A DNA stretch of 64,000 nucleotides from an uncultured Armatimonadota bacterium. Lineage in GTDB: Bacteria; Armatimonadota; Fimbriimonadia; Fimbriimonadales; Fimbriimonadaceae. Shown piece by piece: positions 50,985-58,122 of the stretch (the first letter of the stretch is position 1; every line of letters begins with the position of its first letter). Position numbers and translations under genes: made by a program. Location: the NCBI GenBank assembly GCA_903833215.1, contig CAILEM010000048.1:1-64000 (forward strand), given 5' to 3'. The notes under the pieces are model-generated. The model was not told where the DNA came from. It saw only the letters and a list, made by a program, of their open reading frames with translations, and searched no databases.

Positions 50985-52352
50985 GCCAATTTCAAAACCC
51001 TCTTTAATTTGGCCTTGAGACCAGCCGGGAGGGAGCGATCAGCGCCGGTTGGATGTATGGAGGAGGTTGCTAAGCTGGTTTGGTCGATTGTTGACGTTTA
51101 GGTGCTGTAAGCAGGCGTATTCAAGTAGTCCCTGTGCTTTTGAGGGTTGCCTTTTGAGCTTTTTCTCGTAAGAATTTCAGATTCTCAAAATTCGGAGGGC
51201 GAATATGGTCAGCACACCGAACATGAGATGGGCGTGGACCTTTGGGGCTCCTCGAACGAAGATGAAGTTGCCTCCGTGATTGTCCTTGAGGTCAGAGTTA
51301 AATCTCTCGACCGTCGTTCGGTTCTCAAACCGTTTAGCCCGATCTGGAGTCATTTTAGAAGCGGGCTGGTCTTTGTGGTTTTTCTTGGGTGCGACGATTG
51401 CGACCTGGTCAAGAGCTTTGGCGGTACGCAGGATGGGCTCTCCCGGGTAGCCGCGGTCGAACAGGTTATAGAAGACTTGTCCGGTCCGCTCGGAGACCGC
51501 TTTCATCAAAGGGATCGCCCCAAGCGAATCGCTCATGCTCGCTGATGTAGTGAAGAATATCAAAGGAACTCCGCCGTCTCCCACGCTCACATGTCCCTTG
51601 TAGCCTCGCCAGTAGGATGGAAACCCCATTGAGCCGATCTTCACGCCGAAGTCACAAGCAGACGGAAACGCGGCAGCCGACTCTTGCCAGGTGCGAAGCT
51701 CTTGGAGTTCTTGTACCTTTGGAGGCAGGGGATACTCTTTGCGTCGCCGCTTACCTTGCTTGCGCTCGACCTTGGCTTTGGGCTTTGCCTTGGGCTTACG
51801 TACGGCTTGCTCACGCGCTGGCAACGCAGTTGAATCGTGAGAGACATGGTGAATGATGTCTTGACCAAGGTGGTGCCGCACATTCGCTTCTAACGTCTGG
51901 TCCAAGACGCCTGAGATCGAAAACTCCTCCAGCGCACGGCTGAAAGTCGATTCGCTCGGTACACCTCCCGTGAATCCGCAGATGCGCCGAAGCCGAGAAT
52001 CTACACCAAGACGTTCCACCAAGTCCTTGGTCGTTGGGATGTTCAAAACGGCTTTGGCAATAAACGCACGAGCAATCTGTTTCCGTGGAAGTTGGGGGCG
52101 ACCAAATGGCAAACAAGTTTGCGTGACTCGCTCCTCAATGCGAACGACTTCTAAGACCATTGCAACCTGCTGATGAGAAGGAAGAAGAGGGCCTGTCTCC
52201 TCCTCCAAGTAGCCAAACAGAGATCTTTGCAAATCCAGCCAAAACCGTGCTAATCTCCATCCAAGCTCGGACGCGTCCTGATCTATTTTCACAAAAATAT
52301 GGACGTGCCGGGCCTACCTAAAGACCCCATTATCGACTTCTGAAATTGGCTC
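50983..52352. mobile_element. Complete insertion sequence, DDE family, 12-bp inverted repeats, AGCT target duplication
   Basis: The element runs from GAGCCAATTTCA (50983-50994) to its exact inverse TGAAATTGGCTC (52341-52352), about 1370 bases. It is flanked by AGCT on both sides (50979-50982 and 52353-52356), a four-base target duplication. It carries one transposase gene (51177-52292, minus strand). Since AGCT is its own complement, the same data can be read as a 16-bp inverted repeat without duplication. The remaining ends (50995-51176 and 52293-52340) show no other gene. Confidence 0.8.
51177..52292 (-). CDS. IS4/IS5-superfamily DDE transposase
   Basis: This intact 371-residue transposase has the catalytic triad visible as IIHHVSHDSTALPAREQA (first Asp), YNLFDRGYPGEPIL (second Asp), and TTVERFNSDLKDNHGG (Glu). 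A KPKAKPKAKVERKQGKRRRK basic stretch lies between. GFTGGVPSESTFSRALEEF is the family's helix before the first Asp. The ends (12-bp inverted repeats and AGCT duplication) fit this superfamily, in which 4-bp duplications are common. The intact frame suggests recent insertion. Confidence 0.88.
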   Translation of the reverse strand: MKIDQDASELGWRLARFWLDLQRSLFGYLEEETGPLLPSHQQVAMVLEVVRIEERVTQTCLPFGRPQLPRKQIARAFIAKAVLNIPTTKDLVERLGVDSRLRRICGFTGGVPSESTFSRALEEFSISGVLDQTLEANVRHHLGQDIIHHVSHDSTALPAREQAVRKPKAKPKAKVERKQGKRRRKEYPLPPKVQELQELRTWQESAAAFPSACDFGVKIGSMGFPSYWRGYKGHVSVGDGGVPLIFFTTSASMSDSLGAIPLMKAVSERTGQVFYNLFDRGYPGEPILRTAKALDQVAIVAPKKNHKDQPASKMTPDRAKRFENRTTVERFNSDLKDNHGGNFIFVRGAPKVHAHLMFGVLTIFALRILRI

Positions 52353-53866: not shown

Positions 53867-54889
53867 ATGGTCCCGAAACCGATTCTGGCTCCTAGCCTCC
53901 TTCTCTTAGTTGCCTGTGCTTCGCCGCAGGCCTCTCCCCCTTCGAACGTCGACACAAACTCTTGGATTACCCGAGCTGTTGCAATCTGTCGTGCGCGTGA
54001 GTCGGTCTATGACAGGGCCAGAATTGAGTTCAAAACCTGGACACCGTCCACCGGCGAAGGCCGGTTTATTTGTGAGAACTGGCCAGGCCGACTCAATCTC
54101 TGGGAAGTAGAAAAAGGAAACCGCCGGTTAATCCTCAAATGCGAAGAGGGAAAGGTCTGGACAACGATGCCGGGCGCTATGAATGAGGGTCGCTTCGCCC
54201 TTTACTACGGAACGGAAGATCAAGGAAAAATCTCCCAAGTCTCGTCCATTATCCTCAACCCGCTCGTAACCGGGTGCCTGCTGGCGCCGGGCGTTACCGC
54301 TATGAGTCGTGCAATCTCAAGCGTGAAAGGTGCCAATGCAGAGGTCTCCGCTGGCCGCCTCACCTGCAATTTCACGCCATCGCCCGGGCTCTTTCCCAGG
54401 CAAACCCATTATCAACTTGAGCTTCCGTCAAATGGCGGTCCAGGCATCGTCACCTTTACGATTTCGACGGTGGGACTGCCTTCGCGCAAATACGTCAGCC
54501 GGTACTCGATCGACGGAAGGTTAAGCGGCAATGAACTTGAGGTGTCCGGTGGAAAATCGACAATCCTGTCCAAGGTCGAAATCCTCTCAGTTACCAAAAT
54601 GGCTGAGCCGCCGGCTCGATTGACGATGACCCACGGCCACCCATACTACGACACGGTCGTTCAAACGTACAGATATTGGGGCCTAAAGGCTGTCTTCCAA
54701 ACCAAAGAAGCAGAAAAGGTCTTGGCTGCGGCGAAGTTAAAGAAGCAGCTTACTTTGTCCAACGAGACGGCAAACCTCAATTGTGGCCAAGAGTCCCTTT
54801 ACTACCTTTCGAAGTTTATCGGCAAGCAGGGACTTGACGTAGACCAAAATCCGGCACCATTTGGGACGACCCTTGGCGACGTGGCTTAA
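53867..54889 (+). CDS. Lipoprotein with N-terminal half of a C39-like cysteine peptidase domain (stops early)
   Basis: The 340-residue product begins MVPKPILAPSLLLLVACASP, a lipobox LVAC with the lipidated Cys at residue 17. The middle part is beta-rich and LolA-like in style (FICENWPGRLNLWEVEKGNR), with no enzyme motif. From residue 300 the sequence ANLNCGQESLYYLSKFIGKQ reads as the N-terminal Cys-Gly motif of a peptidase C39-like domain. The frame meets TAA at 54887-54889 right after TTLGDVA, but the same frame then continues with the rest of the domain. The upstream part is intact and starts 118 bases after the GT4 gene. Confidence 0.65.
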   Translation: MVPKPILAPSLLLLVACASPQASPPSNVDTNSWITRAVAICRARESVYDRARIEFKTWTPSTGEGRFICENWPGRLNLWEVEKGNRRLILKCEEGKVWTTMPGAMNEGRFALYYGTEDQGKISQVSSIILNPLVTGCLLAPGVTAMSRAISSVKGANAEVSAGRLTCNFTPSPGLFPRQTHYQLELPSNGGPGIVTFTISTVGLPSRKYVSRYSIDGRLSGNELEVSGGKSTILSKVEILSVTKMAEPPARLTMTHGHPYYDTVVQTYRYWGLKAVFQTKEAEKVLAAAKLKKQLTLSNETANLNCGQESLYYLSKFIGKQGLDVDQNPAPFGTTLGDVA

Positions 54890-55120
54890 TTAGGCAGATC
54901 TAAAGGGTGGGACTGCCAAATTCTTCGATATGCGACCAGTGACTTGAGCTCCGTGGAGTTGCCCGCACTTTTCTCGGTCTCGCCGTCACACTTCGTCGTC
55001 GTTACGTCCCGAGATAGAGAAGGATATCTCCTCATAAGTCCTCCGTACGCCGTGCAAAGGCTAACGGCGGACAACCTCCAAGCGGTTTGGTCCGGATACG
55101 TGATGAGGATTCTCAATTGA
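54890..55120 (+). pseudogene. C-terminal half of the C39-like domain, in frame after the TAA
   Basis: In the same frame as the lipoprotein, after one TAA, come LGRSKGWDCQILRYATSDLS, then SPSHFVVVTSRDREGYLLIS and ADNLQAVWSGYVMRILN, ending TGA at 55118. HFVVV is the His strand of C39-like peptidases (His at 54989-54991); the usual DP after it is SP here. The TTG start of the next gene overlaps this TGA, as in a coupled operon. The simplest reading is one gene of about 416 codons cut by a single nonsense change, or a sequencing error. Stop-codon readthrough is a less likely possibility. Confidence 0.7.
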
Positions 55121-56019
55121 AGGCAAAAGCTCTAGTTTGGCCCATATTGGCGTTTTGCGTCGGATGTGTCGGGATGGTTGTCGCGACACGGTTGCACGCA
55201 AATCCAAGCGGGATGGTGAGAAGAGAATTCGGAACTGTGCCCCCGCTGAAAGATCTGGTCTTCAAGACCGCAGTGAACAACCCGAACAGTTTTCCGCTGA
55301 TCTTGGAGGGCTTTGATAAGGCTTGCGGATTGAGGGTCACCGTCGATGGCGGCGGGATCGTCCCCCCGAAAGGGAGGGTCGAAATGACGCTGACCGCTCG
55401 GACCAACACACTCGCCGGCCCAGGCGGAGCAACCTTCGAACTTACCGAGAATAAGCTTGGAAAACGAACAGTTGTCCCTTACGTCCTCTCGTGGCTGGTC
55501 GCGCCACATCCTTCCCTGTCTCAAGGTGAGATCTGGTTCTCAGGCGACGATGTTTCTCCCAAAGTGCTCCAGTTGATGAACGCCGACAGTGGAGACCGAG
55601 TCCTGTCTGTCCACGCGCCAAGCTGTTATTCAATTAGCGTGGAAAAAGAAGGAGTTACTGTGACTCCTTCCACCAAGTTTGAGGATCTCGTGCCGGGAAC
55701 CTTGGAGGTCGCGCTGCAAACCAGTGTCGGACCGGTCAACCTTTCGATACCCATTGATCGGGTGCCCATCCGCAGCAACGCAGTAAGTCCCGGCTACATC
55801 TTCCTTACTCCCGGAGAGACCAAGCTGGCGCAATTTGATCACGGAGATGAGACCTGGAAGGTTGAAAAGCAAGGACCCTACGCGACGGCTGAGATCCGCG
55901 GGAACACGATCACAGTAAAGGGTGGTCGCGCCGGAGACGATCATGAAGCGGCGATCTTCTTCCGCAGCTCCAAGGGTCAAACAGCGGAGTTGCACGCGTT
56001 TGTTGAAGGCTCCAAGTGA
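55117..56019 (+). CDS. DUF1573-like membrane-anchored protein
   Basis: From TTG 55117 the protein has 300 residues. One N-terminal helix (ALVWPILAFCVGCVGMVVAT) anchors an extracytoplasmic part whose start (MVRREFGTVPPLKDLVFKTA, then NNPNSFPLILEGFDKACGLR) fits a DUF1573/ASH-type Ig-like domain. Two such domains may be present, the second near LLQLMNADSGDRVLSVHAP. DUF1573 proteins often accompany secreted, disulfide-containing products in Planctomycetes and relatives. The start overlaps the previous TGA; its own TGA overlaps the GTG of the VKOR gene. The role is unknown. Confidence 0.7.
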   Translation: MKAKALVWPILAFCVGCVGMVVATRLHANPSGMVRREFGTVPPLKDLVFKTAVNNPNSFPLILEGFDKACGLRVTVDGGGIVPPKGRVEMTLTARTNTLAGPGGATFELTENKLGKRTVVPYVLSWLVAPHPSLSQGEIWFSGDDVSPKVLQLMNADSGDRVLSVHAPSCYSISVEKEGVTVTPSTKFEDLVPGTLEVALQTSVGPVNLSIPIDRVPIRSNAVSPGYIFLTPGETKLAQFDHGDETWKVEKQGPYATAEIRGNTITVKGGRAGDDHEAAIFFRSSKGQTAELHAFVEGSK

Positions 56020-56972
56020 AAATAGCCCGTTCCCTTGTTCTCGGCCTCCTTGGGATCTTTCTGATCTTGGCGTTCTGCGACCACTTCGGGATCGGATCAT
56101 TAACTTGCGGTGAAGGTTGCTCCGCCGCGACATCCGGATGGTTTGGATCGTTCGTGTTGGTTTTAGGCGCGGTTGCGCAGGGCGGATTAGTCTATTTGTT
56201 GGTCACGAACAAGGACCACGAGTTCAAAATCTTCTCCGGAATATGCGCTGCCGGCGGAGTTGCGCTCATCGGTCTGATGATCTTCTCCTTTCACTCGGTC
56301 TGTCAGACTTGTGCAGGATTTGACGTGACGATGCTCATTCTATGGGTGTCAAATTGGTGGTCCGGAAAGGCGAAGTTCGCGCTGATCCCGACAGCATTGA
56401 TCCTTTCCGTCCTACCCGGCATTGTGCTCTTTGAAAGGTTCGCACCCAAATCGGCGGCTGCGAACGAATCTCCCGACATCGCAAGGTACGAGGGAGAGAC
56501 CCTTGATCCGATGCGCACCAACCTCATCGTCTTCGCAGACCCTAATTGCCTTCATTGCCGAAAGCTTGTTGAAAAGCTACTTGCCAATAACAAGCAATAC
56601 CAAGTGTTTGATCGCTGGGTGGTGTTTGAGCCACCGATGGAAAGCGGAAGACGCGTCGCTGCAATTATCGCTGCTTTACAATCCCGCGGTGACCGTTTTG
56701 CAACACCCTTGCTGCGCGATCTTTCGTCGTCGCAAGGTGAGTTTACGGATCATCAACTCGTCACTTTTGCCGAGAACATCGGCATCTCCGAAAAAATGAA
56801 AGCGATGCTTGTGAATCTTCCGCAGGACGGTGTAAATCGGCTAATGGAAGACGCCAAGAGCGCATCGCAGTGCAGGATCACCAAGGTACCTGCCGTTTAC
56901 TTAATATTAGGAGAAGGTGGTTCAGGTAAAGGCTGGAACATCGTGCCTGACGATCAAGTTGTTAGCGAATAG
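56016..56972 (+). CDS. VKOR-like/thioredoxin fusion, disulfide-forming membrane enzyme
   Basis: This 318-residue protein begins at GTG 56016. The N-terminal half has four hydrophobic helices with loop cysteines (LTCGEGCSAATSGWFG) and a redox motif FHSVCQTCAGFDV, the CxxC of vitamin-K-epoxide-reductase homologs that pass electrons to quinones. The C-terminal half is a DsbA/thioredoxin-like domain (NLIVFADPNCLHCRKLVEKL with CLHC; cis-Pro region ITKVPAVYLI). Such fusions oxidise proteins in the periplasm by themselves. It lies 22 bases before the gene of an 8-Cys small protein, which is its most obvious substrate. Confidence 0.82.
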   Translation: MKIARSLVLGLLGIFLILAFCDHFGIGSLTCGEGCSAATSGWFGSFVLVLGAVAQGGLVYLLVTNKDHEFKIFSGICAAGGVALIGLMIFSFHSVCQTCAGFDVTMLILWVSNWWSGKAKFALIPTALILSVLPGIVLFERFAPKSAAANESPDIARYEGETLDPMRTNLIVFADPNCLHCRKLVEKLLANNKQYQVFDRWVVFEPPMESGRRVAAIIAALQSRGDRFATPLLRDLSSSQGEFTDHQLVTFAENIGISEKMKAMLVNLPQDGVNRLMEDAKSASQCRITKVPAVYLILGEGGSGKGWNIVPDDQVVSE

Positions 56973-56994: not shown

Positions 56995-57405
56995 ATGAAG
57001 AAGTCTATGAACGTCTTCAGCGCCTTGGGCGCTGGGTTGGTAGTGGGTGCCGGAATGATGGTGGGTGCAGCGAATATGCATTCGCGTCCACAAGTGGTAG
57101 GCGACAAAGAGGCTGGCAAGGTCAAGGGGGGAGACATATTCTCCGCCTGCAGCTTCCCTACCTGCAACTCATACGGAACCTGCAGTACCGGATTTGGCGG
57201 TGAATACTATTCAGACCCGGTCAGCACTACAAAGAGCTGTACGGCTGCCTCATACCCTTACTGCGGCGATCAGCCGAAGAAGGTGACTTGCGTTTACCAG
57301 GTGTACTCTGATAGATTGTGCACTGTTCATAGCGGTACGCAGTCGATAACCAGTCCCTACTGCGCACTCCTGACGGCTACTGCAACGTCAACTGTAGCAG
57401 GCTAA
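56995..57405 (+). CDS. Small cysteine-rich exported protein with double-glycine leader
   Basis: This 136-residue protein has a good ribosome site (AAGGAAA). Residues 1-30 form a Sec-like signal (MKKSMNVFSALGAGLVVGAG...). Residues 35-46 read VGDKEAGKVKGG, which matches the double-glycine leader rule: hydrophobic at -12, Glu at -8, small hydrophobic at -7, Val at -4 and GG at -2/-1. The rest, about 90 residues, has eight Cys (FSAC, PTC, GTC, KSC, YPYC, VTC, DRLC, SPYC) and is rich in Ser, Thr and Tyr. I know no family. Its place after the VKOR fusion and the C39-like gene suggests oxidative folding and proteolytic maturation outside the cell membrane. Confidence 0.75.
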   Translation: MKKSMNVFSALGAGLVVGAGMMVGAANMHSRPQVVGDKEAGKVKGGDIFSACSFPTCNSYGTCSTGFGGEYYSDPVSTTKSCTAASYPYCGDQPKKVTCVYQVYSDRLCTVHSGTQSITSPYCALLTATATSTVAG

Positions 57406-57465
57406 TTAGCAGTGGGCTTTGACAAAACTTCGTTCCGCTCAAGGCCCAGGTGCTCGCTGGACAAC

Positions 57466-58122
57466 ATGATGATTAAACAGAACCCACAAATAGGAGCTAG
57501 TCGAGCCTTTACGTTGATTGAGCTCATGGTAGTAATGGCGATTATTGCCATACTTGCCTCTATCTTGATGCCGGTCTTTGCCAGCGCTCTCGAACGTGGC
57601 AAGCAGGCGTCGTGCCTGGAGAATCTCCATCAATTAGATCTCTCAATAACCCTTTACTCAAATGATTCGGATGGATTTGCTCCATGCTATACGTCGAACG
57701 AACTGTTTCTTTCTAACGGCGGTCCGCTGCCTTCGAACTCCGATGATCCGAAGCTGCTTACACAAGTCATAAATCCGTATCTAAAGTCGAAGCAGGCTTG
57801 GTTCTGCCCAAGCGATAGGATGGTGAGCAAGCCTGTTTTCTATCTCGGAATCGTCCACACCTACATGAGCTACAACGTAGTTACATTCGATCCCGTTGAC
57901 CGCGGCGGATTACCTCATTTGAACCTCGATTCGGCGCCTACCGGCAAATTCCTCGTTGGCGACGCGGTCGCCCCATTGTTCGACTCCGATTCGGTGTTCG
58001 TTACCGGCGAACCCCCGTATCCATCGCTTTCCAACCACGGTGCCACGATTTCCCAATACGTTAATGTTGGAGGTTCAGCTTTGCGTGTGAGCCCACGATT
58101 CCTTTCAGGCGCGTTGTACTAA
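57466..58122 (+). CDS. Pseudopilin-like protein next to the cysteine-rich protein gene
   Basis: From ATG 57466 the protein has 218 residues: a short leader, SRA/FTLIELMVVMAIIAILASI with Glu5, and PVFASALERGKQASCLENL. The body contains FCPSDRM and SLSNHGATISQYVNVGG, as in DUF1559-type or H-x9-DG-like pseudopilins of this phylum. The cleavage residue before Phe is Ala in place of the usual Gly, which some peptidases accept. It follows the cysteine-rich gene by 60 bases and may be a substrate or scaffold in the same export process. Confidence 0.7.
   Translation: MMIKQNPQIGASRAFTLIELMVVMAIIAILASILMPVFASALERGKQASCLENLHQLDLSITLYSNDSDGFAPCYTSNELFLSNGGPLPSNSDDPKLLTQVINPYLKSKQAWFCPSDRMVSKPVFYLGIVHTYMSYNVVTFDPVDRGGLPHLNLDSAPTGKFLVGDAVAPLFDSDSVFVTGEPPYPSLSNHGATISQYVNVGGSALRVSPRFLSGALY

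What the first reader, a model, noticed from the sequence alone, without database searches (positions are those of the whole stretch)
56995..57405. Double-glycine leader placed behind a Sec-type signal
Residues 35-46 (VGDKEAGKVKGG) satisfy every position of the bacteriocin GG-leader rule, yet they follow a hydrophobic N-terminal signal of 30 residues. Combining the two signals in one precursor is unusual and suggests a two-step maturation: Sec export then GG cleavage. The mature ~90-residue, 8-Cys part is too long for most bacteriocins and has no known family.
Basis: seen in the sequence. Interest (0 to 1): 0.78.

Follow-up and report, generated by a model that had tools for sequence, protein, structure and literature searches.

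The report
Sec-exported cysteine-rich GG-leader precursor
This gene appears to encode a small disulfide-rich protein that is first exported by the general secretion route and then trimmed outside the cytoplasm by a protease of the kind that normally trims bacteriocins inside the cell, and related gene sets recur in other bacteria of the same phylum.

Summary
The motif E...V.GG behind a signal is not significant on its own. But the gene sits in a cassette with a C39 peptidase (the family that cuts double-glycine leaders) that has a lipoprotein-type signal and no ABC transporter. The cassette recurs in related genomes. Homologs share seven cysteines. Across 80 C39 loci of the phylum, profile-scoring leaders behind signals occur in 31 of 222 nearby signal-bearing ORFs against 1 of 172 in control regions, on cysteine-rich small proteins and on very large, partly RHS, proteins. 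Best reading: Sec export, disulfide formation, then extracytoplasmic C39 cleavage after GG. FapD is the nearest precedent, with its substrate unresolved. Caveats: no experiment; the window's own C39 gene has an in-frame TAA; two homologs have degenerate leaders; the mature protein's role is unknown.

The parts
56995..57405 (+). Small precursor gene, 136 aa: signal, GG-type leader, 90-aa part with 8 Cys
   Evidence: homologs
56995..57075 (+). Sec-type N-terminal signal (residues 1 to about 27; cleavage site not predicted by a dedicated program)
   Evidence: sequence shown; hydropathy inference
57097..57132 (+). Double-glycine-type leader VGDKEAGKVKGG, residues 35-46
   Evidence: profile from other loci 10.6 bits, 0.4% of shuffles
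57133..57402 (+). Predicted mature part, 90 aa, 8 Cys; 7 Cys columns invariant in 7 aligned homologs
53867..55120 (+). Lipoprotein-type protein with C-terminal C39 peptidase domain (Cys codon 54782-54784, His codon 54989-54991); reading frame interrupted by TAA at 54887-54889
   Evidence: Pfam PF03412 E 8.4e-5, 22.8 bits against cut-off 22, with the stop read as X; alignment with intact relatives; genome search over cut-off
55117..56019 (+). DUF1573-like protein (start overlaps the stop of the C39 gene)
   Evidence: no Pfam hit for the window protein; homolog in G037 weak DUF1573 (E 0.0043); profile-profile with DUF1573 domains prob 95.9, E 5.4e-9
56016..56972 (+). Membrane protein with C-terminal thioredoxin-like CxxC domain, predicted thiol oxidoreductase
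   Evidence: PF13462 E 8.6e-4 below cut-off; six Cys invariant in three homologs
57412..58122 (+). Type II pseudopilin-like protein (N-methylation motif); likely start at 57466
   Evidence: PF07963 E 1.3e-7; pseudopilin-like neighbour also in G037 (two loci), G002 and G171

Best explanation
The gene encodes a pre-pro-protein. Step 1 (inferred): the N-terminal signal takes it through Sec and signal peptidase removes the signal, leaving a pro-segment that ends in GG. Step 2 (inferred): in the periplasm the cassette's membrane thioredoxin-like protein (in other genomes a MauE protein takes this place) helps set the disulfides of the Cys-rich part. Step 3 (inferred from co-occurrence and leader conservation): a membrane-anchored C39 peptidase outside the cytoplasm recognises the leader (E at -8, a hydrophobic residue at -7 and/or -4, G at -2) and cuts after GG, releasing a disulfide-rich protein of about 90 residues. 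The product is most likely a secreted or surface protein, perhaps linked to the neighbouring pseudopilin; its activity is unknown. In this strain the C39 gene has an in-frame TAA, which is an assembly error or a real loss, so maturation here is uncertain.
For: C39 domain in the cassette, conserved Cys and His with intact relatives. Same gene order in G037 and G012 at 22-28% identity. Further homologous precursors next to a C39 gene in G002, G019, G171 and a second locus of G037. Independent leader profile: significant in 4 of 7 distinct homologous sequences, window included. Phylum-wide: 31 of 222 signal-bearing ORFs near C39 against 1 of 172 in control regions at 9 bits or more, leave-one-locus-out; shuffles 0.9%. 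Strict consensus 7 of 387 against 0 of 172, shuffle mean 0.24. Twelve of those 31 ORFs are small proteins with 8-15 Cys after the leader. C39 fused to DUF1573 in 8 of 8 tested C39 proteins of Cys-type loci, while the window has the two as neighbouring genes. All four C39 regions of the window's genome lie in open frames of 368-452 aa, so no C39-bearing ABC exporter was found there. Redox partner: thioredoxin-like in three loci, MauE in G002.
Against: No cleavage or localisation data. The window C39 reading frame contains TAA, and its third catalytic position is Ser instead of Asp; Ser or Asn also occurs there in relatives with an uninterrupted domain. The profile match is weak in G012 (p 0.097) and absent in G171 and G038, though all three keep the cysteines. 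50 of 80 fetched C39 loci show no ORF at 9 bits or more within 3.5 kb. The loose motif alone is at chance level. Signal peptides were called by hydropathy only.
Confidence: 0.7

Rival explanations
1. The GG match is chance: the protein is an ordinary Sec-secreted Cys-rich protein, trimmed only by signal peptidase, and the C39 gene acts on something else.
For: The loose motif occurs at chance rate; homologs in G171 and G038 lack a clear leader; most C39 loci have no detected leader nearby.
Against: A profile from other loci singles out exactly this site here and significantly scores the matching site in three homologs, strongest in same-genus genomes G002 and G019; a C39 gene is in the cassette in 7 of the 8 family loci seen.
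Confidence: 0.14
2. The C39-like domain binds the leader as a chaperone or targeting factor and does not cut, as proposed for some C39-like domains.
For: Non-cutting C39-like domains are described (PMC5557850 passages); the third catalytic residue varies (Ser/Asn); an Omnitrophota relative has Ser at the Cys position.
Against: Cys and His are kept in all aligned Armatimonadota members; GG/GA/GS-type ends in several precursors fit cleavage.
Confidence: 0.12
3. The window copy is decaying: the protease gene is truly broken and the precursor is no longer matured, although the system is functional in relatives.
For: In-frame TAA in the C39 domain; no other match to this C39 protein in the genome at E 0.01 or better.
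Against: The domain after the stop is still collinear with relatives, and the other cassette genes are open; an assembly error cannot be excluded; three other C39 genes exist in the genome.
Confidence: 0.35
4. It is a conventional class II bacteriocin exported and cut by a C39-bearing ABC transporter.
For: The GG leader shape and Cys-rich small product.
Against: A Sec-type signal precedes the leader; all four C39 matches of the genome are in frames too short for a C39-ABC exporter; no such exporter is in the cassette.
Confidence: 0.03

Closest known systems
Pseudomonas Fap system: FapD, a periplasmic C39 peptidase (NCBIfam NF058616)
   Same: C39 peptidase exported by a Sec signal, acting in the periplasm on a Sec-exported system; catalytic Cys required (PMC5557850, passages read).
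   Different: Fap proteins are reported to lack canonical C39 sites and the FapD target was unresolved. No FapF channel or amyloid subunits were recognised here. The G037 C39 matches the FapD model only at 29.7 bits against a cut-off of 330; the window's does not match it.
Peptidase-containing ABC transporters (PCAT) with GG-leader bacteriocins
   Same: C39 domain and leader consensus E(-8), hydrophobic -7 and -4, GG.
   Different: Leader lies behind a Sec signal; peptidase is not fused to a transporter and is predicted extracytoplasmic.
Neisseria nap island (NapP C39, NapF, Nap peptides)
   Same: C39 peptidase, FapF-like channel and GG-motif peptides in one island (PMC11798529, passages read).
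   Different: Peptides are under 10 kDa and cationic; no Sec signal is mentioned in the passages read; no Cys-rich part or DUF1573/redox partner is mentioned there.
FilB, 'putative pilus system C39 family peptidase' (NCBIfam NF050078)
   Same: A C39 peptidase annotated outside ABC exporters; pilus context is reminiscent of the neighbouring pseudopilin.
   Different: Similarity is negligible (E 0.069 for the G002 C39); no paper describing its substrate was found (listing).

Membership tests
C39 peptidase (PF03412) for the 53867-55120 gene | Match over the Pfam cut-off with catalytic Cys and His | tested here: met
   22.8 bits against 22 with the stop read as X; Cys and His aligned. Third residue Ser; frame interrupted.
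GG-leader precursor | L-S-x2-E-L-x2-I-x-G-G shape at the cleavage site | tested here: inconclusive
   5 of 7 key positions match or are conservative in the window; profile p 0.004; near-canonical in same-genus homologs G002 and G019.
GG-leader precursor | Cleavage after GG | not testable with these tools
   Needs protein chemistry.
PCAT / class II bacteriocin system | C39 fused to an ABC transporter in the genome | tested here: not met
   Only four C39 matches, in frames of 368-452 aa.
FapD | Match to the NCBIfam FapD model over cut-off | tested here: not met
   Window: no match; G037: 29.7 bits against 330; G012: no match.
DUF1573 (55117-56019) | Pfam match over cut-off | tested here: not met
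   None for the window protein; distant relation by profile comparison.
Sec substrate | Signal peptide by a dedicated predictor | not testable with these tools
   Hydropathy only; no SignalP available.

The most novel reading that the evidence does not exclude
Armatimonadota run a general second maturation step outside the cytoplasm: double-glycine leaders moved behind Sec signals and read by anchored or soluble periplasmic C39 peptidases, serving at least two unrelated cargo classes (disulfide-rich small proteins with DUF1573 and thiol-redox partners, and giant RHS-repeat proteins). The window cassette would be one branch of this pathway.
Probability: 0.65. Interest if true: 0.8.

Novelty: new variant of a known kind. 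Interest (0 to 1): 0.68.

Why it matters
C39 peptidases are known mainly as cytosolic partners of ABC exporters. The one studied periplasmic case seen here, FapD, was reported without a canonical recognition site or a settled substrate. These loci supply candidate substrates with a near-canonical leader placed behind a Sec signal, so what periplasmic C39 enzymes recognise becomes directly testable. They also give a neighbourhood for the uncharacterised DUF1573 domain (fused to C39 in 8 of 8 tested Cys-type proteins) and a set of unannotated disulfide-rich secreted proteins. Ten literature searches of the held library listed no paper that I recognised, from title and abstract start, as describing this arrangement; the library lacks most subscription journals.

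Tried and rejected
Direct sequence search with the window protein over 101 genomes gave only noise apart from itself (best other E 0.005, with stops); it was replaced by searching with the neighbouring genes, which found the cassette.

AlphaFold2 on the 90-aa part (pLDDT 49) and on the DUF1573-like protein (pLDDT 42), both without an alignment, gave no usable model; no fold search was run.

The idea that the Ser in place of the third catalytic residue marks a dead enzyme was dropped: relatives with uninterrupted domains have Ser or Asn there. The idea that the loose motif alone is evidence was dropped. Conventional ABC-exported bacteriocin was rejected.

A whole-collection scan with an 11-row C39 alignment gave 11 loci, ten Armatimonadota and one Omnitrophota. 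It finds only close relatives of that subgroup and says nothing on other phyla. The Omnitrophota locus showed no leader-bearing precursor in the ORF list read.

Rows dropped before counts: one search listed about 150 places; 80 loci were fetched, chosen down the ranking, with two rows of 1000 aa or more and two of 730-740 aa left out near the top and several lower rows skipped (some were already held). One search counts only ORFs within 3.5 kb of C39, not overlapping it, found by a simple ORF caller (which missed the G019 precursor, recovered). One search uses one of the two near-identical G171/G037 copies. G174 (E 0.048), a Cys-rich protein with GG close to its signal and no acidic residue, and other weak rows were not counted as homologs.

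Full report
OBSERVATION. The ORF 56995-57405 (+) encodes 136 aa with a hydrophobic N-terminus, VGDKEAGKVKGG at residues 35-46, and a 90-residue remainder with 8 Cys. A loose motif (acid, 3 residues, aliphatic, 1 residue, G, G/A/S) within 100 residues behind a hydrophobic N-terminus is at chance level: 24 of 387 ORFs in C39 loci against a shuffle mean of 15.0, and 7 of 172 in control regions against 6.9. So the motif by itself proves nothing.

THE NEIGHBOURHOOD. Upstream lies a gene with a lipoprotein-type N-terminus (MVPKPILAPSLLLLVAC) whose C-terminal part is a C39 peptidase domain (PF03412, E 8.4e-5, 22.8 bits against a cut-off of 22, in-frame stop read as X). C39 is the family that cuts double-glycine leaders. 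Then follow a DUF1573-like protein (profile-profile prob 95.9, E 5.4e-9 against DUF1573 domains from other loci; no direct Pfam hit), a membrane protein with a thioredoxin-like CxxC domain (sub-threshold Pfam), the precursor, and a pseudopilin (PF07963 E 1.3e-7). Start and stop codons overlap or nearly abut through the first four genes.

THE CASSETTE IS CONSERVED. Of 101 related genomes, the C39 protein was found at E 0.01 or better in 6 and the thioredoxin protein in 8, own genome included in both. In G037 the five genes lie in the same order, and in G012 the first four, each with a small Sec-type Cys-rich protein that has a GG-type site at the same place: NAELDLVVGG then IFTEC, and EDEAGNIAGQ then AAC. 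A profile of four small proteins over 85 genomes of the family added homologs in G019, G171, G038 and a second locus of G037; G002 had come from the C39 survey. Seven distinct sequences align with seven invariant Cys. G002 carries pseudopilin, MauE (PF07291 E 1.6e-19), precursor, a 344-aa protein and C39 (E 4.9e-13). G019 has precursor, partner and C39 (E 3.6e-13) on a short contig. G171 and the second G037 locus have pseudopilin-like, MauE-like (by eye), precursor, a 328-aa protein and a C39-like gene (in G171 tested: just under the cut-off, E 1.9e-4). G038 has MauE-like (by eye), precursor and partner; no C39 was found in that genome. Pseudopilin-like ORFs are rare in control regions (2 of 369 ORFs).

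THE LEADER TEST. A 12-column profile from 16 strict leaders of other loci was applied to the seven sequences: window 10.6 bits (p 0.004), G037 7.3 (0.0014), G012 2.2 (0.097), G002 13.0 (0.0006), G019 18.1 (0.0002), G171 and G038 no match (0.60, 0.38). In the first five the best site is the one after the signal. Fisher p for the six homologs without the window is 4.8e-7. G002 and G019, of the window's own genus, have near-canonical leaders (LTRAEMNLTRGA then GSTC; LTLGEMKAAQGA then GSVC).

A WIDER PATTERN. PF03412 was found in 116 of 291 genomes of the phylum. Matching records name the phylum as Armatimonadota. In 80 fetched C39 loci, leave-one-locus-out scoring at 9 bits gave 31 of 222 nearby signal-bearing ORFs (30 loci) against 1 of 172 in twenty 20-kb control regions from some of the same genomes, and 0.9% of shuffles. 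The stricter consensus gave 7 of 387 against 0 of 172 (shuffle mean 0.24), and 17 of 387 against 0 of 172 when the last residue may also be R or Q and -4 may be A (0.34). Of the 31, twelve are small proteins with 8-15 Cys after the leader, fifteen are proteins of over 800 aa, four are others. Three of those fifteen were tested by Pfam: two are RHS-repeat proteins (L106, L128) and one matched only DUF6531 (L131); a further RHS match (L061) is from the window's genome. Eight of eight tested C39 proteins of the Cys-type loci carry a DUF1573 domain, which ties the window's separate DUF1573-like gene to the peptidase. In the window's genome three more C39 genes each lie upstream of a large protein with a similar N-terminal arrangement, and no C39-ABC exporter was found.

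MECHANISM. Shown: gene content, conservation, leader profile, Cys conservation. Inferred: Sec export, signal-peptidase cleavage, disulfide formation by the redox partner, C39 cleavage after GG outside the cytoplasm, release of a disulfide-rich protein. Its activity is unknown; a structural or surface role near a pseudopilin and an antagonistic role are both open.

WEAK POINTS. The window's C39 frame has TAA at 54887-54889, with the conserved His motif beyond it still in register. It may be an assembly error or a real loss. Signal peptides were judged by hydropathy. 50 of 80 C39 loci had no ORF at 9 bits or more within 3.5 kb. The C39 partner protein of about 300 aa has no clear family: one fused example matches LolA_like at E 0.002, below cut-off.

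COMPARISON WITH THE KNOWN. FapD is a periplasmic C39 needed for Fap secretion; its target was unclear and Fap proteins lack canonical sites (PMC5557850 and PMC6173800, passages). The nap island pairs a C39 with GG peptides and a FapF-like channel (PMC11798529, passages). MAM is proposed as a PCAT substrate (PMC12184118, passages). Ax21 was re-assigned to Sec and found to lack a GG motif (PMC3897388, passages), a warning against reading leaders too freely. The window C39 does not match the FapD model. I file it as a new variant of C39/GG processing, not as a member of the Fap, PCAT or bacteriocin systems.

Noticed in passing
window 54887-54889: In-frame TAA inside the C39 domain of the cassette's peptidase gene, with conserved sequence continuing in the same frame after it.
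   Followed up: partly
L060 3245-8584, L061 1641-6844, L062 7303-11325 (window's genome): Three further non-ABC C39 genes, each upstream of a large protein with a Sec-type N-terminus and a leader-like LTxxE..LQG[AR] or similar segment.
   Followed up: partly
L103 5062-5703, L110 5235-5768, L126 5243-5779 (coordinates as oriented): Another possible substrate type next to C39: proteins with a motif like SDxxLDxVYAAG just behind the signal.
   Followed up: no
L155, L167, L171 and other C39 hits in frames of 1300-1900 aa: C39 domains inside very large single ORFs, possibly substrate and protease in one chain.
   Followed up: no
L219 2167-8687, L220 1911-8431: The precursor cassette sits between genes that look like EF-G and EF-Tu, an unusual place inside a probably highly expressed region (genes named by eye).
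   Followed up: no
L200 1193-2647: Omnitrophota C39-DUF1573-like protein with Ser at the position of the catalytic Cys, suggesting a non-cutting version.
   Followed up: no
window 51177-52292: Transposase gene (PF05598, PF01609) a few kb upstream of the cassette.
   Followed up: no
L218 1759-2172 (G038): Homologous precursor with a degenerate leader in a genome without detected C39: possible joint loss of leader and protease.
   Followed up: partly
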